Made by a program: the position numbers and the translations under genes. From assembly GCA_037043455.1 (NCBI GenBank), contig JAWPHD010011421.1, positions 1 through 64,000 on the forward strand: a stretch of DNA of 64,000 bases. Direction: 5' to 3'. Positions within the stretch are counted from its first letter, which is position 1. Every line of letters begins with the position of its first letter. Origin of the DNA: Cyrtodaria siliqua (Eukaryota > Mollusca > Bivalvia > Adapedonta > Hiatellidae). Positions 31,073 through 58,303 of this stretch are shown in pieces. The notes beneath the pieces are model-generated. The model was not told the origin of the DNA, did no database searches, and saw only the letters and a list, made by a program, of their open reading frames with translations.

Positions 31073-31139
31073 ATGGCTGCCTCTCCAAAAGAAAAATTTG
31101 AAGCAGCTATCAAAGTTATTCATAGCCTTCCAAAAGATG
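31073..31139 (+). CDS. ACBD5: ACBD5-like gene, exon 1 (coding part)
   Basis: The ATG at 31073 is preceded in frame by TGA (31061-31063) and sits in the context AAAATGG, which fixes the start. Twenty-two codons plus one base (MAASPKEKFEAAIKVIHSLP, then KD and the first base of Gly) end at a GT donor (31140-31141, GATG|GTATTT), phase 1. KFEAAIKVIHSLPKDG matches the opening helix of the ACB domain in animal ACBD4/5 proteins (RFEAAVKVIQSLPKNG in vertebrates). ACBD5 is a tail-anchored peroxisomal protein that binds very-long-chain acyl-CoA and tethers peroxisomes to the ER through VAP proteins; those functions are family knowledge, not visible here. The upstream side of the gene is the end of the segmental duplication. 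Confidence 0.85.
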
Positions 31140-34760: not shown

Positions 34761-34919
34761 CAGATTGACCCCTACCTCCTCCTCACCCCTCCCAAAGTAC
34801 TGTTTTACCCTGGGTACTAATTATATTGTGTAACTTCCTTAGTTATAAAAAACAACATTTATTTGATCTTTTAGTAAGTGTATTCCACCTTAAAGTGTAT
34901 AAATCTTCTTTTTTTCTAG

Positions 34920-35148
34920 GTCCCTTCCAGCCCTCCAATGAGATGCTGCTGACATTTTATGGTTATTTTCCAGGTCCCTTCCAGCCCTCCAATGAGATGA
35001 TGCTGACATTTTATGGTTATTTTCCAGGTCCCTTCCAGCCCTCCAATGAGATGATGCTGACATTTTATGGTTATTTTAAGCAGGCAACAGAGGGACCATG
35101 TATGCTGACTAAACCAAACTTTTGGGAAGTGGTGAAAAAAGCAAAATG
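34920..35148 (+). CDS. ACBD5: ACBD5-like gene, exon 2 with triplicated 54-bp 5' end
   Basis: The acceptor is CTTTTTTTCTAG|GTCCC (AG at 34918-34919), phase 1, completing the Gly of exon 1. The exon encodes GPFQPSNEMLLTFYGYFP, GPFQPSNEMMLTFYGYFP, then GPFQPSNEMMLTFYGYFKQ and ATEGPCMLTKPNFWEVVKKAKW, ending TG|GTAATT (35149), phase 2. The last copy is the canonical ACB domain helix 1-2 region: FYGYFKQATEG holds the conserved Tyr and Lys of the acyl-CoA site, and KAKW the second Lys. The first two units each end in TTTTCCAG|GTCCC, so each unit junction is itself an acceptor (AG at 34972-34973 and 35026-35027). Splicing to the third acceptor (exon 35028-35148, 121 nt) gives a normal-length domain. 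Splicing to the first adds 36 residues between helices. Confidence 0.85.
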
Positions 35149-43688: not shown

Positions 43689-43761
43689 GGATGCTTGGCA
43701 CAAGCTGGGAGACATGGATAGAGAAACTGCCATGGTAAATTATGTAGAGGAACTTAAAAAG
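43689..43761 (+). CDS. ACBD5: ACBD5-like gene, exon 3
   Basis: The acceptor is TTTTTACACTACAG|GGATG (AG at 43687-43688). One base completes the Trp of KAKW, then DAWHKLGDMDRETAMVNYVE and ELKK, ending AAG|GTAGGC (43762), phase 0. This is ACB domain helices 3-4; the vertebrate counterpart reads DAWSSLGDMTKEEAMIAYVE. The Tyr of NYVEELKK is the conserved acyl-CoA-site tyrosine. The donor GTAGGC is a weak match to GTRAGT. The last ~30 nt of this exon plus the donor seed the giant tandem array that follows. Reading through the donor reaches a stop at 43840-43842. Confidence 0.85.
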
Positions 43762-46700
43762 GTAGGCATTCCTTTGTTTAATTTTGTGGAAAACTTAAGA
43801 AGGTATGTTTTCCTATGGTTAATTATGTGGAGGAACTGGTAAATTATGTGGAGGAACTGGTAAATTATGTGGAGGAACTGAAATTATGTGGAGGAACTTA
43901 AGAAGGTATGTTTTCCTGTGATTAATTATGTGGAGGAACTTAAGAAACTATGTTTTCCTGTGGTTAATTTTGTGGAGGAACTGGTAATTATGTAGAGGAA
44001 CTGGTAAATTATGTAGAGGAACTTAAGAAGGTATGTTTTTCTGTGGTTAATTATGTGGAGGAACTTAAGGTTTGTTTTCCAGTGGTTAATTATGTGGAGG
44101 AACTTAAGAAAGTATGTTTTCCTGTGGTTAATTATATGGAGGAACTGGTAAATTATGTGGAGGAACTGGTAAATTATGTGGAGGAACTGAAATTATGTGG
44201 AGGAACTTAAGAAGGTATGTTTTCCTGTGATTAATTATGTGGAGGAACTTAAGAAAGTATGTTTTCCTGTGGTTAATTTTGTGGAGGAACTGGTAATTAT
44301 GTAGAGGAACTGGTAAATTATGTAGAGGAACTTAAGAAGGTATATTTTCCTGTGGTTAATTATGTGGAGGAACTTAAGAAAGTATGTTTTCCTGTGGTTA
44401 ATTTTGTGGAGGAACTGGTAATTATGTAGAGGAACTGGTAAATTATGTAGAGGAACTTAAGAATGTATGTTTTCCTGTGGTTAATTATGTGGAAGAATTT
44501 AAGAAGGTATGTTTTCCTGTGGTTAATTATGTGGAGGAACTTAAGAAGTTATGTTTTCCAGTGGTTAATTATGTGGAGGAACTTAAGAAAGTATGTTTTC
44601 CTGTGGTTAATTTTGTGGAGGAACTGGTAATTATGTAGAGGAACTGGTAAATTATGTAGAGGAACTTAAAAAGGTATGTTTTTCTGTGGTTAATTATGTG
44701 GAGGAACTTAAGAAGGTGTGTTTTCTTGTGGTTAATTATGTGGAGGAACTTAAGAAGGTATGTTTTCCTGTGGTTCATTATATGGATGTTTTCCTGTGGT
44801 TAATTATGTGGAGGAACTGGTAATTATATAAAATAACTGGTAAATTATGTAGAGGAACTGGTAAATTATGTGGAGGAACTTAAGAAAGTATGTTTTCCTG
44901 TGGTTAAATATGTGGAGGAACTTAAGAAGGTGTGTTTTCTTGTGGTTAATTATGTGGAGGAACTTAAGAAGGTATGTTTTCCTGTGGTTCATTATGTGGA
45001 TGTTTTTCTGTGATTAATTTTGAGGAGGAACTGGTAATTATATAAAATAACTGGTAAATTATGTAGAGGAACTGGTAAATTATGTAGAGGAACTTAAGAA
45101 GGTATGTTTTCCTGTGGTTAATTATGTGGAGGAACTTAAGGTTTGTTTTCCAGTGGTTAATTATGTGGAGGAACTTAAGAAAGTATGTTTTCCTGTGGTT
45201 AATTATATGGAGGAACTGGTAAATTATGTGGAGGAACTGGTAAATTATGTGGAGGAACTGAAATTATGTGGAGGAACTTAAGAAGGTATGTTTTCCTGTG
45301 ATTAATTATGTGGAGGAACTTAAGAAAGTATGTTTTCCTGTGGTTAATTTTGTGGAGGAACTGGTAATTATGTAGAGGAACTGGTAAATTATGTAGAGGA
45401 ACTTAAGAAGGTATATTTTCCTGTGGTTAATTATGTGGAGGAACTTAAGAAAGTATGTTTTCCTGTGGTTAATTTTGTGAAGGAACTGGTAATTATGTAG
45501 AGGAACTGGTAAATTATGTAGAGGAACTTAAGAATGTATGTTTTCCTGTGGTTAATTATGTGGAAGAATTTAAGAAGGTATGTTTTCCTGTGGTTAATTA
45601 TGTGGAGGAACTTAAGAAGTTATGTTTTCCAGTGGTTAATTATGTGGAGGAACTTAAGAAAGTATGTTTTCCTGTGGTTAATTTTGTGGAGGAACTGGTA
45701 ATTATGTAGAGGAACTGGTAAATTATGTAGAGGAACTTAAAAAGGTATGTTTTTCTGTGGTTAATTATGTGGAGGAACTTAAGAAGGTGTGTTTTCTTGT
45801 GGTTAATTATGTGGAGGAACTTAAGAAGGTATGTTTTCCTGTGGTTCATTATGTGGATGTTTTCCTGTGGTTAATTATGTGGAGGAACTGGTAATTATAT
45901 AAAATAACTGGTAAATTATGTAGAGGAACTGGTAAATTATGTGGAGGAACTTAAGAAAGTATGTTTTCCTGTGGTTAAATATGTGGAGGAACTTAAGAAG
46001 GTGTGTTTTCTTGTGGTTAATTATGTGGAGGAACTTAAGAAGGTATGTTTTCCTGTGGTTCATTATGTGGATGTTTTCCTGTGATTAATTTTGAGGAGGA
46101 ACTGGTAATTATATAAAATAACTGGTAAATTATGTAGAGGAACTGGTAAATTATGTGGAGGAACTTAAGAAAGTATGTTTTCCTGTGGTAAATTATGTGG
46201 AGAAACTTAAGAAGGTATGTTTTCATGTGGTTAGTTATATGGAGGAAGTATGTTTTCCTGTGGTTAATTATGTGGAGGAACTGGTAAATTATGTGGAGAA
46301 ACTTAAGAAGGTATGTTTTCATGTGGTTAATTTTGTGGAGGAATTGGTAATTATGTAGAGGAACAGGTAAATTATGTGAAGGAACTGCTAAATTATGTGG
46401 AGAAATGTAAGAAGGTATGTTTTCCTGTTTATAATTTTGTGGAGGAACTGGTAATTATGTAGAGCAGTGAACTCTCTTGTTAGTTCACTGTTTAGAGGAA
46501 CTGGTAAATTATGTAGAGTAACTGGTAAATTATGCTGAGGAACTTAAGAAAGTATGTTTTCCTGTGGTTAATTATGTGGAGGAACTGGTAATTATGTGGA
46601 GGAACTTAATAAGGTGTGTTTTCCTGTTGTTAATTATGTGGATGAACTGGTAAATTATGTGGAGAAACTTAATAAGGTATTTTATCTGTGGTTAACTATG

Positions 46701-48235
46701 TGGACAACTGGTAAATTATGTGGAGGAACTGGTAATTATGTAGAGGAACTGGTAAATTATGTGGAGGAACTTAATAAGTATGTTTCATGTGGTTAATTAT
46801 GTGGAGAAACTTAAGAAGGTTTGTTTTCCTGTGGTTAATTATGTGGAGGAACTGGTAATTATGTAGAGGAACTGGTAAATTATGTAGAGGTACTGGTAAA
46901 TTAGGTAGAGGAACTGGTAAATTAGGTAGAGGAACTGGTAAATTATGTGGAGGAACTTGTTAAAGAAGGTGTGTTTTCCTGTTGTTAGTTATATGGAGGA
47001 ACTGGTAAATTATGTGGAGAAACTTAAGAATGTATGTTTGCCTGTGGTTAATTATGTGGTGGAACTGGTAATTTATGTGGAGGAACTGGTAATTATGTAA
47101 AGGAACTGGTAATTATGTATAAGAACTGGTAAATTATGTGGAGGAACTTAAGAAAGTATGTTTTCATGTGGTTAATTATGTAGAAAATCTTAAGAAGGTA
47201 TCTTTTCTTGTGGTTAATTATGTGGAAGAACTTAAGAATGTATCTTTTCCTGTTGTTAATTATGTGGAGGAACTGGTAAATTATGTGGAGTAACTGCTAA
47301 ATTATGTGTATAAACTTAAGAAGGTATGTTTTCCTGTGGTTAATTATGTGGAAGAACTTAAGAAAGTATGTTTTCCTGTGGTTAATTATGTAGAGGTACT
47401 GGAAAATTATGTGGAGAAACTTAAGATGGTATGTTTTCCTGTGGTTAATTATGTGGAGGAACTGGTAAATTATGTGGGGGAACAGGTGATTAAATAGAGG
47501 AACTGGTAAATTATGTGGAAGAACTTAAGAAATTATGTCCTGTGGTTCATTATGTAGAGAAACGTAAGAAGGTATGTTTTCCTGTGGTTAATTATGTGGA
47601 GTAACTTAAGAATGTATGTTTTCCAGTGGTTAATTATGTTGAGGAACTTAAGAAAGTATGTTTTCCTGTGGTTAATTATGTGGAAGAACTTAAGAAAGTA
47701 TGTTTTCCTGTGGTTAATTATGTGGAGGAACTTAAGAAAGTATGTTTTCCTGTGGTTAATTATATGGAGGAAATGGTAAATTATGTGGAGGAACTGGTAA
47801 TTATGTAGAGGAACTGGTAATTTATGTAGAGGAACTGGTAATTATGTAGAGGAACTGGTCAATTATGTGGAGGAACTGGTAATTATGTAGAGGAACTGGT
47901 CAATTATGTAGAGGAACTGGTAAATTAAAGAAAGTATGTTTTCCTGTTGTTAATTTTGTGGAGGAACTTAACAAGGTATCTTTTCCTGTGGTTAATTATG
48001 TGGTGGAGCTTAAGAAAGTATGTTTTCCTGTGGTTAATTATGTGGTGGAGCTTAAGAAAGTATGTTTTCCTGTGGTTAATTATGTGGTGGAGCTTAAGAA
48101 AGTATGTTTTCCTGTGGTTAATTATGTGGTGGAGCTTAAGAAAGTATGTTTTCCTGTGGTTAATTATGTGGTGGAGCTTAAGAAAGTATGTTTTCCTGTG
48201 GTTAATTATGCGGAGGATACTTAAGAAGGTTTGTT
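43733..48235 (+). repeat. ~4.5-kb minisatellite derived from the exon 3/intron 3 junction
   Basis: Two interleaved unit types are built on AATTATGTGGAGGAACT: a 42-bp unit continuing TAAGAAG|GTATGTTTTCCTGT, and a ~21-bp unit continuing GGTA. The first unit overlaps the true exon end (GTAAATTATGTAGAGGAACT at 43734-43753), so the array is the coding end of helix 4 plus splice donor, amplified. Its size suggests on the order of a hundred or more units (estimate, not a count). Runs of identical long units near 47626-47780 and 47990-48200 look recently homogenised. Frames such as VCFPVVNYVVELKK repeats are array products. Confidence 0.9.
44000..46140 (+). repeat. Higher-order tandem duplication of 1071 bp inside the exon 3-derived array
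   Basis: Landmarks recur at a constant 1071-bp offset: GGTTTGTTTTCCAGTGG at about 44068 and 45139, and identical minus-strand frames at 44569-44778 and 45640-45849 and at 44804-44992 and 45875-46063. The two ~1-kb blocks differ at only a few positions. Confidence 0.85.
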
Positions 48236-49150
48236 TTTCTTCAAACCAACCTACTTTCTAGCGAATTACAATTTTAAAAGGTGACTGCTTACATGTGTTT
48301 ATTTTAATGAGTTAAGCTAGATATTAATTGCATTATTTTTTCTTGACAGACAATTTATCAAAATATGTCCATGTACATATTAAACCCCCATGGAATGGGA
48401 TGTATTATGGAATGTGGCTGTCCGAACGTACAACACCTACGCTCATGAAACTTCATAAATACATTGCCCTTGATGAGAGGAGAAACTTTTTTGTGGTCAT
48501 TAGGCCAAAGGTCAAAGTCACACTGACCTCATAATGGCATTTATGTATTCCGCATGATAACTCGGGATGTATAAGAATCATGTAATGATCATGAACCTGT
48601 GTTGCTACATTGCCTTTGGTGAGAGAAAGAAACAAGGCATGGACCTACTCATTCTATGCGATATCCCCATAAGTACCCACATTCATGATACATTGCCCTT
48701 GGTGAGAGGAGGAACCCTATTGCTATTGGGGTCAGTCAGTCACAAATCAAGGTCACATTGGCCTGCCAATGGTGCAATCCTGAAAAATCACCATCTACAC
48801 TGTAATTTTTGCATTTACTTTTCTTTTACTTTACACTTTACATAATAATTCCTCTTTTGACCGTTTGCCGCCCGAAACTATACAGTTCAATGATGACCCC
48901 TATACATTGTCGAGTAAATAGACTTAGGTAAATGATGCCCTGAAAATGAAAGTTCTTGTCTTCTCTGTAACTCTTCAAGTCTTAGCCATACTCATGAAAC
49001 TTTACAGGTACACTGTCCAAGATATGAAGCTGACGCTAAACATTTTGGAGTCAATAGGTAAAAGGTCAAGGTCACCATGATATAATAAGGACAAACCTTG
49101 TCTGCTCTATAACTCTTAAAAATTTGTAGCCACATGTATGAAGCTACATA
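48236..49150 (+). repeat. Decayed repeat with GGTCAAGGTCA-type units (intron 3)
   Basis: Loose repeats of ACATTGCCCTTGATGAGAGG, GGCCAAAGGTCAAAGTCACA and ACTCTTCAAGTCTTAGCCATA-like phrases; typical molluscan dispersed repeat, too diverged to delimit units. No exon. Confidence 0.45.
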
Positions 49151-53495: not shown

Positions 53496-53552
53496 ACACT
53501 CAAAGTGTGCACTGAAAAATGGAATGACATGTCCAAAAATGGTGACCCCAGG
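53496..53552 (+). CDS. Candidate 57-nt cassette exon of the ACBD5-like gene
   Basis: It is flanked by a good acceptor (TTTTCACTAATTTTTTTCAG, AG at 53494-53495) and a donor (CCCAGG|GTATGA at 53553). Its length is exactly 19 codons, it starts and ends in phase 0, and the frame is open: TLKVCTEKWNDMSKNGDPR. Exon 3 ends and exon 4 begins in phase 0, so inclusion would insert 19 hydrophilic residues between ELKK and IVEAMP without a frameshift. In vertebrate ACBD5 the two flanking segments are contiguous (KKIIETMP), so this would be an optional exon. Support is from splice logic and composition only. Confidence 0.5.
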
Positions 53553-54766: not shown

Positions 54767-56325
54767 TCTACTGATCAGAGATCAGCAGAGCTTATGCCGT
54801 GGTGCGTCGTCCGTCTGTCCGTAAACTTTTATTTGTAGCGACTTCACAGCTGAAACTACTGGATGGATATTCATGAAACTTTACAGAAATGTTGCCCATA
54901 AAGTCTAGTTGATCCTAGCAAAAATTCATGTTGATGTGAAATCCAAGATGGCCGCCAAAGCTAAAAATAGAGTTTTAAAATACAAGTTTGTAGCGACTTC
55001 TTCTTGAAAACTATAAGTGATATTGATATGGGACTTTTTCTAAAATGATCAGCATGACATGATGTTGATCCTAGTCAAAAATCGTTTTGATTCAACGTTA
55101 AACATGGCTGCCAGCGGCCATCTTTGTTTACATAGAGTTATATAGTAAAAACTTGTAGCGACTACTTCTCTGAAACTACTTGGCGGATTGTCATGAAACT
55201 TTACAGGAATGTTGCTCTTGATGTCTAATTGATCCTAGAAAAATTTCAGGTCGGCCGGAAATTCAAGATGGCCGTCACAGCTAAAAATAGATTTTTAAAA
55301 AATAAGTTTGTAGCGACTACTTCTTGAAAACTATAAGTGATATTGATATGGGACTTTTTCTAAAATGATCAGCATTACATGATGTTGATCCTAGTCAAAA
55401 ATCGTTTTGATTCAACGTTAAACATGGCTGCCAGCGGCCATCTTTGTTTACATAGAGTTATATAGTAAAAACTTGTAGCGACTACTCCTCTGAAACTACT
55501 TGGCGGATTGTCATGAAACTTTACAGGAATGTTGCTCTTAATGTCTAATTGATCCTATCAAAATTTCAGGTCGGCCGGAAATTCAAGATGGCCGTCACAG
55601 CTAAAAATAGATTTTTAAAAAATAAGTTTGTAGCGACTACTTCTTGAAAACTATTAGTGATATTGATATGGGACTTTTTCTAAAATGATCAGCATGACAT
55701 GATGTAGATCCTTGTGGAAAATTATTTTGATTCGACGTTAAACATGGCTGCCAGTGGCCATCTTTGGTTACATAGAGTTATATAGTAAAAACTTGTAGCG
55801 ACTACTCCTCTGAAACTACTTGACGGATGTTCATGAAACTTCACAGGAATGTTGCTCTTGATGTCTAGTTGATCCTAGAAAAATTTCAGGTCGGCCGGAA
55901 ATTCAAGATGGCCGCCACAGCTAAAAATAGATTTAAAATAAATAATTTTGTAGCGACTACTTCTTCAAAACAATAAGAGATATTGATATGGGACTTTTTC
56001 TAAAATGATCAGTATGACATGATGTTGGTCCTTGTCGAAAATCGTTTTGATTTGACCTTAAACATGGCTGCTTTGTTTACATAGAGTTATATAATGAAAA
56101 CTTGTAGCGACTACTTCTTTGAAACTACCTGACGGATTTTCATGAAACTTCACAGGAATGTTGCTCTTAATGTCTTATTGATCTTAGCAAAATTTCAGGT
56201 CGGCCGGAAATTCAAGATGGCCGCCACGGTTTAAAATAGATATTCAAAAAACAAGTCTGTACCGACTACTTCCTGAAATCAAAATCAATCAGTAGAGCTT
56301 CAAGGTCATTGACCTCTTGTTTAAG
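54767..56325 (+). repeat. Hairpin-headed repeat element with ~320-bp tandem array (about 4.5 units)
   Basis: The head TTTTAGCTCTACTGATCAGAG...GCAGAGCTTATG and GTCGTCCGTCTGTCCG is followed by large units sharing CTTGTAGCGACTACTTCTCT, GAAACTACTTGGCGGATTGT, TTTCAGGTCGGCCGGAAATT, CAAGATGGCCGTCACAGC and AACATGGCTGCCAGCGGCCA. The last landmark recurs at about 55103, 55422, 55743 and 56060. It ends with TCATTGACCTCTTGTTTAAGG. Confidence 0.8.
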
Positions 56326-56612: not shown

Positions 56613-56742
56613 ATCGTGGAAGCCATGCCACAAACCAATGTTGTGGGAGACTTCTTAGAAAAATTAGGCAGTTTCTATGAGATTGTGGATGAGGAATCAC
56701 CAGTGAAGGGATCCCGCCATATCTCACCAGGGGGCAGCACAG
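56613..56742 (+). CDS. ACBD5: ACBD5-like gene, exon 4 (alternative end at 56808)
   Basis: The acceptor is CATTTATTTCAG|ATCGTG (AG at 56611-56612), phase 0. The exon encodes IVEAMPQTNVVGDFLEKLGS, FYEIVDEESPVKGSR and HISPGGST. It matches the helix following the ACB domain in ACBD5 (IIETMPMTEKVEELL...GPFYEIVED in vertebrates). Two GT donors give phase 1, matching exon 5: CACAG|GTATCC (end 56742) and GCAG|GTGGAC (end 56808, adding 22 Ser/Gly/Asp-rich codons). Neither is a strong donor. If neither is used, the frame runs on into the adjoining minisatellite as octapeptide repeats and stops at 57038. Confidence 0.8.
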
Positions 56743-56816: not shown

Positions 56817-57460
56817 TTTCAGCTAGCAGCATGGCTGAATGGTCAGCTAGTAGCATGGCTGAATAGTCAACTAGCAGCATGGCTGAATGGTCAGCTAGTA
56901 GCCTGGCAGAATGGTCAGCTAGTAGCATGGCTGAATGGTCAGCTGGCACCATGGGTGAATGGTCAACTAGGAACATGGCTGAATGGTCAACTAGCAGCAT
57001 GGCTGAATGGTCAGCTGGCACCATGGCTGGTAGCATGACAATGTTCAGCTAGCGGCATGGCTGATTGGTCTGCTAGAAACATGACTGAACGGTCAGTTGG
57101 CACCATGGCTGAATGGTCAGCTGGCAGCATGGCTTAATGGTCAGCTGGTAGCATGGCTGATTGGTCTGCTAGTAACATGGATGACTGGTCAGCTAGAAAC
57201 ATGGCTGAATGGTCAGTTGACATCATGGCTGAATGGTCAGCTGGCAGCATGGCTGAATTGTCAACTAGCAACATGACTGAATGTTCAGCTAACAACATGC
57301 TGAATGGTCAGCTAGCAACATGGCTAAATGGTCAGCTGGCAACATGGCTGAATGGTTAGCTGGCAGCATGGTGGAATGTTCAGCTAGCAACATGGCTGAA
57401 TGGTCAGCTAGCAGCATGACTGAATGGTCAGCTAGCAGCATGGCTGAATGGCTTGGTTTA
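56817..57460 (+). repeat. Minisatellite, 24-bp unit (AGCATGGCTGAATGGTCAGCT...), about 26 copies
   Basis: Units read AGCATGGCTGAATGGTCAGC plus TAGT, TGGC and similar variants. It begins 9 bp after the second possible exon 4 donor. The first nine units are open in the exon 4 frame (AAWLNGQL repeats), later units are open in other frames. The multiple overlapping frames on both strands are repeat artefacts. Confidence 0.85.
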
Positions 57461-58072: not shown

Positions 58073-58303
58073 ACAATGGAGATATACTGGACATGTCCCA
58101 GCAGGTGGAGTCTGTCCTGAATATGACACAAGAGATGGATTCCGCTCTGCAGAAATACTCCCACATGGACGAAGACATGTCCCATCAGGGCGAATCTGCA
58201 CTGCAGACGTACTCACATACGGATGACGAGGATGCTATCCCTGTACACTCCCAAGCACACAGTCTGCCACTCACTAATGGGGATAATCTTGATGATGGGG
58301 AAG
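58073..58303 (+). CDS. ACBD5: ACBD5-like gene, exon 5 (acidic linker)
   Basis: The acceptor is CAATTTCTTCCTTGCAG|ACAATG (AG at 58071-58072) and the donor is GGGGAAG|GTAAGA (58304), a near-consensus site; phases 1 and 1. It encodes NGDILDMSQQVESVLNMTQE, MDSALQKYSHMDEDMSHQGE, SALQTYSHTDDEDAIPVHSQ and AHSLPLTNGDNLDDGEG. It is rich in Asp/Glu/Ser/Gln and probably disordered, as the segment between the ACB domain and the C-terminal coiled coil and membrane anchor is in ACBD5. SALQKYSHMDED and SALQTYSHTDDED look like an old internal duplication. Gene identity here rests on phase and position; the linker itself is poorly conserved in the family. Confidence 0.7.

What the first reader, a model, noticed from the sequence alone, without database searches (positions are those of the whole stretch)
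43689..48235. A coding exon end and its splice donor amplified into a 4.5-kb array
Seen: exon 3 ends NYVEELKK|GTAGGC, and the array downstream repeats AATTATGTGGAGGAACTTAAG and AAG|GTATGT in 42-bp units, plus shorter units ending CTG|GTAAAT. The repeat unit is therefore the ACB domain helix 4 coding end plus the 5' splice site. Most long units keep a donor arguably closer to consensus than the authentic GTAGGC. Inference: the intron carries dozens of decoy or alternative 5' splice sites, which could act as a U1 sponge, shift splicing to nonsense isoforms (read-through stops at 43840-43842), or be silenced by context. A minisatellite built from an exon-intron junction of an essential-type domain is unusual.
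Basis: partly seen in the sequence, partly recalled or inferred. Interest (0 to 1): 0.88.

Follow-up and report, generated by a model that had tools for sequence, protein, structure and literature searches.

The report
Splice-junction minisatellite in ACBD5 intron 3
A 4.5-kb array of over 140 short repeats that match the end of a coding exon, many together with its splice site, fills the start of one intron of an ACBD5 gene; it likely grew by tandem copying and likely persists because splicing would cut the extra copies out, and similar arrays lie at two more exons of this gene and in other genes of the same genome.

Summary
Observation confirmed. Exon 3 (43689-43761) of an ACBD5 ortholog is followed to about 48236 by 144 repeat units (66 long, 70 short, 8 other). 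The 42-bp unit is 24 exonic plus 18 intronic bases (22/24 and 13/18 identical to the real junction). All whole-genome matches to an array piece lie here, and orthologs keep the exon peptide, so the exon is the parent. Corrections: the short units are exonic codons, not donors; whether decoys beat the real donor depends on the scorer (0, 0 or 26 of 492 GT sites); 65 of 65 long-unit GT sites tested would give a premature stop. No sponge or switch function was shown. New: the exon 2 acceptor (54 bp x3) and, beyond the window, the exon 8 acceptor (27 fuzzy copies) of this gene are also tandemly copied. In other genes 4 of 48 sampled exons carry junction arrays (one weak); 28 further exons with short flanks gave none. 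Local direct repeats span 19% of flank windows, 4.5% of exon edges, 0.3% of exon interiors. Best reading: sequence-blind tandem duplication filtered by selection; junction-spanning duplications likely survive because the exon-side splice site leaves the extra copies in the intron. A new variant of a known kind.

The parts
31073..31139 (+). ACBD5 exon 1 (start codon; ends GATG|GTATTT)
   Evidence: tblastn and reading
34920..34973 (+). Exon 2 acceptor-derived copy 1 of 54 bp (in frame)
   Evidence: TRF; sequence; translation
34974..35027 (+). Exon 2 acceptor-derived copy 2, preceded by TTATTTTCCAG|G
35028..35148 (+). Exon 2 as orthologs have it (third acceptor), ends AAATG|GTAATT
43689..43761 (+). 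Exon 3, parent of the array (its last 24 bases are the exonic half of the long unit)
43762..48236 (+). Junction-derived minisatellite in intron 3; with the exon's own unit (43738-43779) 145 units: 67 long, 70 short, 8 other
44049..45119 (+). Higher-order block, first copy (1071 bp)
   Evidence: 1065/1071 identical to 45120-46190
45120..46190 (+). Higher-order block, second copy
53496..53552 (+). Likely cassette exon 3b in intron 3 (TLKVCTEKWNDMSKNGDPR), homologous to a 19-residue insert in oyster ACBD5 models
56613..56742 (+). Exon 4 (IVEAMPQTNVVGDF...), joins exon 3 in phase 0
58073..58303 (+). Exon 5

Best explanation
The array consists of repeats that match the exon 3 end and its donor, most likely grew by repeated tandem duplication across that junction, and is predicted to be harmless because splicing at the exon-side donor would leave every extra copy inside the intron. 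Steps: (1) shown: the long unit spans the junction, the exon is the ancestral part, and the array was found only in this gene. (2) inferred: tandem duplication in this genome is blind to sequence, and duplications that alter coding sequence are removed by selection. (3) inferred: a duplication that spans a junction escapes, because if the donor (or acceptor) nearest the exon is used the mRNA is unchanged. (4) shown for one other junction array, more weakly for a second: copy number or arrangement differs between two contigs whose exons are nearly or fully identical. (5) inferred: no dedicated function; the copies mostly drift, leaving some usable decoy sites that could now and then give nonsense transcripts.
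For: Junction-spanning unit and exact exon copies. Whole-genome matches only here. YVEELKK exact in 7 of 9 aligned orthologs, none with a repeat of it in the protein. The same pattern at the exon 2 acceptor (54 bp x3) and the exon 8 acceptor (27 fuzzy copies counting the exon's own, 0 in the first 73.5 kb of the contig). In other genes 4 of 48 independent exons: three exons of E2 enzymes (L056; L048/L051; L049/L050) and one CCT exon (L045) whose exonic share is weak. 24-bp windows spanned by local direct repeats: flank 1529/7906, match edge 6/134, match interior 1/383; edge against interior p=0.0015, edge against flank p=1e-6; counting one exon per cluster for the edges, 4/96 against 1/383, p=0.006. 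L049 and L050: exon 224/225 identical, acceptor motif 23 against 8 exact, 23 against 10 fuzzy, the exon's own included. ACBD5 exons 1-8 read open as one frame.
Against: No RNA data, so use of the exon-side donor is untested. A rough own-genome matrix ranks 26 of 492 array GT sites at or above the real donor; in L056 one decoy outscores the real donor (6.1 against 3.5) and in L045, L048 and L051 two, two and three decoys tie it, so silent copies are not guaranteed. ACBD5 has 3 of 9 exons affected against 4 of 48 elsewhere (p=0.07; against 4 of 76 with the short-flank sample p=0.02), so something local to this gene is possible. 28 short-flank exons gave 0 hits. Pairs such as L049/L050 may be alleles or recent duplicates; the stretch beyond L050's array had no match in L049. 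Junctions are not enriched over introns, so no junction-specific process is implied.
Confidence: 0.75

Rival explanations
1. The array acts: its donor-like sites bind U1 or compete with the real donor and tune ACBD5 output by nonsense splicing.
For: 25 array sites read AAG|GT(A/G)TGT (19 and 6), which a rough own-genome matrix ranks above the real donor. 65 of 65 long-unit GT sites tested lead to a stop by residue 115. Intron 3 also holds a likely conserved cassette exon at 53496-53552, so the region may already be alternatively spliced.
Against: Donors are not better kept than the rest: the -1 G is the most variable position (12 of 31 distinct units differ). Two other scorers favour the real donor. 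The same kind of array occurs in unrelated genes and at acceptors, which a donor-sponge idea does not predict.
Confidence: 0.1
2. The array is an assembly artefact (false expansion in a repeat).
For: No reads were available to me; the 1071-bp block is 1065/1071 identical to its neighbour, which an assembler could inflate.
Against: Units differ: 31 distinct sequences among 59 full 42-mers. Junction arrays appear on both contigs of two near-identical pairs (L048/L051, L049/L050). The exact length could still be wrong.
Confidence: 0.08
3. The exon end came from the repeat: an older satellite was recruited as coding sequence.
For: Exon end and units are nearly identical.
Against: Orthologs from clam, annelid, shrimp and cockroach keep the peptide (YVEELKK exact in 7 of 9), and the unit was found nowhere else in the genome.
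Confidence: 0.02
4. The array is coding: it forms an alternative long exon of NYVEELKK-type repeats.
For: 42 and 21 bp are multiples of three, and single units are open.
Against: Stops occur 83 to 99 times per frame; the longest open run is 113 codons in 4.5 kb; 20-bp units shift the frame.
Confidence: 0.03

Closest known systems
Human IFI6 (6-16, G1P3) minisatellite with multiple splice donors (Turri et al. 1995: title seen in the reference list, and one passage on repeat units as donor sites seen, in PMC4526556; the paper itself is not held)
   Same: By title and passage, a minisatellite whose units serve as splice donors between exons.
   Different: There repeat units are reported as used donors. 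Here use is untested, and acceptors of the same gene are also arrayed. Unit length and copy number of IFI6 were not seen in a call.
Internal tandem repeats at exon-intron boundaries of human duplicated genes (PMC2812944; start of abstract, passages and one section seen)
   Same: Minisatellites (on average 30-bp units repeated 4 times) at boundaries that can change splicing.
   Different: Those cases are in recent paralogs; here ACBD5, with one copy found, has over 140 units at one junction and arrays at two more.
[quoted passage not shown] abstract and other passages seen)
   Same: Tandem duplication of sequence with splice signals, protein unchanged because the extra copy is spliced out; a fission-yeast case with multiple copies of a 24-bp exonic segment is mentioned there.
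   Different: No new intron: an existing intron is lengthened from its own edge.
Minisatellites near alternatively spliced exons in C. elegans (PMC4039745; passages seen)
   Same: Intronic minisatellites discussed as possible splicing regulators.
   Different: In the passages seen, those repeats are not described as copies of the exon-intron junction.

Membership tests
Minisatellite | Tandem array of units of about 10-100 bp | tested here: met
   Units of 19-50 bp, 145 counted with the exon's own
Splice-donor minisatellite (IFI6-like) | Unit spans an exon-intron boundary and carries a donor | tested here: met
   24 exonic + 18 intronic bases; GT kept in 56 of 59 full units
Splice-donor minisatellite (IFI6-like) | Repeat donors are used in mRNA | not testable with these tools
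Tandem-duplication intron gain (Rogers model) | A new intron appears inside a former exon | tested here: not met
   The exon 3 peptide aligns without a gap to 9 orthologs (three oysters have a 19-residue insert just after it); the copies lie downstream of the donor
Dispersed satellite or transposon-derived repeat | Copies elsewhere in the genome | tested here: not met
   37 of 37 matches lie within this array (one candidate scored, counts are lower bounds)
ACBD5 (acyl-CoA-binding domain protein 5) | ACB domain, later coiled coil and C-terminal membrane segment (recalled) | tested here: inconclusive
   ACB domain and coiled-coil exon found, 79% identity to a Mercenaria ACBD5-like protein over the N-terminal part; a membrane exon was not found in the 84 kb read

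The most novel reading that the evidence does not exclude
Exon-intron junctions of ordinary housekeeping genes in this genome are a recurrent seedbed of hypervariable minisatellites. Splicing acts as the shelter that lets junction-spanning duplications live, so each allele carries its own stock of tens of spare donors and acceptors, a standing supply from which new splice forms can arise.
Probability: 0.5. Interest if true: 0.75.

Novelty: new variant of a known kind. Interest (0 to 1): 0.6.

Why it matters
If splicing hides junction-spanning duplications, repeat-rich genomes should accumulate spare splice sites next to real ones in essential genes. That is a natural, many-fold replicated experiment on how the spliceosome picks one site among dozens of near-copies, and a source of splice variation that may differ between alleles. 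It also warns that gene models and short-read splice maps can fail at such junctions.

Tried and rejected
Sponge, switch and coding readings of the array: see the rivals. Selection against decoys: the -1 G varies most (12 of 31 distinct units), but the three donor G positions (12, 2, 4) do not clearly exceed the other nine G positions (0, 9, 1, 5, 9, 3, 0, 3, 2) in the table, so I claim neither purging nor upkeep. A gene-specific cause was considered: 3 of 9 ACBD5 exons against 4 of 48 elsewhere gives p=0.07 (0.02 against 4 of 76), not enough. The 24-bp x26 array at 56819-57451 near exon 4 showed no evident likeness to an exon when read by eye. In one search, 9 of 60 exons passed a loose filter; four of them (L025, L026, L027, L075) had E-values above 1 and were set aside as chance; ACBD5 exon 1 also gave one weak hit (42 bp, 76%, E 0.03, 1.4 kb away), not counted among the 3 of 9. 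Two of the 67 sampled loci (L053, L075) had more than one stop in the match frame and were kept. Literature: in the listings of eight searches (three of them returned nothing) I recognised no paper, by title and start of abstract, that reports junction-derived minisatellites across a genome; the library lacks most subscription papers.

The U1 energy is a plain duplex calculation. Subfamily names of the control genes (CCT subunit, E2 types) are recalled from their peptides; the calls give only the Pfam family.
Full report
What is there. The window lies on an 84,152-bp contig (C11421) of a 2.88-Gb genome in 26,948 contigs; I read 84,000 bases of it. The gene is an ACBD5 ortholog on the + strand: exon 1 31073-31139, exon 2 ending 35148, exon 3 43689-43761, exon 4 56613-56742, exon 5 58073-58303, and beyond the window exon 6 67438-67526, exon 7 69704-70172 and exon 8 77145-77369. 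The best relative is an ACBD5-like protein of the clam Mercenaria (79% over the aligned N-terminal part), so the genome is most likely a bivalve's. With these ends exons 1-8 read open without a stop; a first script with an exon 7 end two bases short showed stops in exon 8. A last, membrane-anchor exon was not found in the stretch read.

The array. Directly after exon 3 the sequence repeats for 4.5 kb. Cutting at the exon-derived anchor gives 145 units including the exon's own: 67 of 39-46 bp, 70 of 19-21 bp and 8 others. The long unit is AATTATGTGGAGGAACTTAAGAAG|GTATGTTTTCCTGTGGTT; its first 24 bases match the exon end at 22 positions, its last 18 the intron start at 13. Two units copy the exon's last 24 bases without error (44650 and 45721), against a best of 18/24 in 100 shuffles. 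The short unit is exonic only: the 22-mer TGGTAAATTATGTAGAGGAACT lies in exon 3 at 43733 and occurs 11 times exactly in the array. A 1071-bp block is doubled at 1065/1071 identity, so growth went on at several scales.

Which came first. Nine orthologs picked from the 120 listed (clam, three oysters, two annelids, shrimp, sea cucumber, cockroach) align through the exon 3 peptide without a gap; YVEELKK is exact in 7 of 9. The three oysters carry a 19-residue insert just after it, which matches a likely cassette exon at 53496-53552 here. These are proteins: whether the orthologs' introns hold arrays I could not see. A 161-base array piece finds 37 matches in the whole genome, all in this array; the tool scored one candidate and calls counts lower bounds. 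The exon is therefore the parent and the array its local offspring.

Donors. In 59 full 42-mers the donor reads AAG|GTATGT 18 times, AAG|GTGTGT 5 times, AAA|GTATGT 22 times, the rest other; GT is kept in 56. Counting consensus matches, the real donor has 7 of 9; 23 units have 8, 34 have 7 and 2 have 6. A recalled human-like matrix puts the real donor above all 492 other GT sites, and none of the 492 pairs with U1 as strongly. A rough matrix from 39 donors of this genome puts 26 of 492 at or above it. So the decoys are weaker or comparable, depending on the scorer. Joining exon 4 after the GT site of a long unit gives a stop at residue 113-115 in 65 of 65 tested (66 long units, one without a matching site); exon 3 ends at residue 87.

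Not alone in this gene. The start of exon 2 with its acceptor is present three times (54-bp units). Each inner copy carries CTGAC, a T-rich stretch and TTTTCCAG|G, so on inspection it looks like a complete acceptor; the joint shares TTTT between exon and intron, which suggests a microhomology-mediated duplication (inference). All three acceptors keep the frame; only the third gives the protein that orthologs have, the others insert 18 or 36 residues. At exon 8 (outside the window) the acceptor plus about 25 exonic bases recurs: 27 fuzzy copies, counting the exon's own, between contig positions 73954 and 77131, none in the first 73.5 kb, interrupted by about 1.8 kb of other sequence. Four other exons and the likely cassette exon gave no self-repeat hit, and exon 1 one weak hit that I do not count.

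Not alone in the genome. I sampled exons found with three Pfam families (PF00118, PF00179, PF00887): 67 loci with 1.5-kb flanks (the listed best matches; the ACBD5 exon left out), forming 48 clusters at 88% identity. Local direct repeats span 1529 of 7906 flank windows (19%), 6 of 134 match edges (4.5%) and 1 of 383 interior windows (0.3%); edge against interior p=0.0015, edge against flank p=1e-6, and 4/96 against 1/383 gives p=0.006 with one exon per cluster at the edges (interior windows were not thinned). Match edges only approximate exon edges, and flanks may hold other exons. The six edges are four exons. One E2-enzyme exon (L056) ends GGGAACATGGTCGGGCAAG|GTTAGTAT and is followed by 27-bp copies; another (L048/L051) ends ACTGGAAACCAGCCACCAAAACAGATCAGG|GTAAGC with copies of about 87 bp; a third (L049/L050) starts TTTGCAG|GTGACATTCAG with upstream copies mostly about 53-70 bp apart; a CCT exon (L045) is followed by 48-bp units that begin at the donor, with only a weak exonic share. 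A further 28 exons with flanks of roughly 140-230 bp gave no hit; some belong to the same families or genes as the first sample.

Change between copies. L049 and L050 lie on two contigs: exon 224/225 identical, 943 bp from the exon start on at 99.6%, yet 23 against 8 exact acceptor motifs (23 against 10 fuzzy), the exon's own included; the L049 array runs off the fetched stretch, and the sequence beyond L050's array had no match in L049. L048 and L051: 187/187 bases identical over the exon match and first intron bases, 7 against 8 fuzzy copies in a different arrangement. Whether these pairs are alleles or recent duplicates I could not test. No second copy of the ACBD5 junction was found.

Reading. 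Flanking, mostly intronic DNA here is full of local duplications and exon interiors are nearly free of them, with junctions in between. The simplest account is that duplication is blind, selection clears it from exons, and splicing spares those that cross a junction, because using the exon-side site removes every extra copy. The ACBD5 intron 3 array would be a large case of that kind. The RNA step is inferred; nothing here shows which sites are used. In other genes of the sample some decoys tie or outscore the real donor, so competition is possible.

Known relatives. The human IFI6 minisatellite with multiple donors (cited in PMC4526556), boundary repeats in human duplicated genes (PMC2812944) and intron gain by tandem duplication (PMC4974935) are the nearest kinds I saw. 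What I did not recognise in the listings of eight searches is the recurrence: three junctions in one gene, at donors and acceptors, and several other genes of one genome.

After the filing check I changed these facts: exon 7 end, number of donors tested, the two counts for L049/L050, the limits of the uniqueness search, and the weak exon 1 hit. None called for a change of the odds.

Noticed in passing
window 34912-35077: Exon 2 acceptor plus 50 coding bases present three times (54-bp units), each in frame and each with what looks like its own acceptor.
   Followed up: yes
contig C11421 73954-77168 (L005/L006): Exon 8 acceptor plus about 25 exonic bases in 27 fuzzy copies, the exon's own included, split by about 1.8 kb of other sequence.
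   Followed up: yes
window 53496-53552: Likely cassette exon in intron 3, homologous to a 19-residue insert in oyster ACBD5 models.
   Followed up: partly
window 56819-57451: 24-bp unit repeated 26 times just after exon 4; no evident exon parent by eye.
   Followed up: partly
window 44001-48000: Very strong GC skew (+0.6) on the coding strand over the array, which could favour RNA-DNA hybrids.
   Followed up: no
window 54833-56278 and L006 3835-4550: The same 320-bp tandem unit (TTGTAGCGACTACTCC...) in two places of the contig, so likely a dispersed repeat family.
   Followed up: no
L049 and L050: Junction array upstream of a near-identical E2-enzyme exon differs in copy number (23 against 8 exact motifs, 23 against 10 fuzzy, the exon's own included).
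   Followed up: yes
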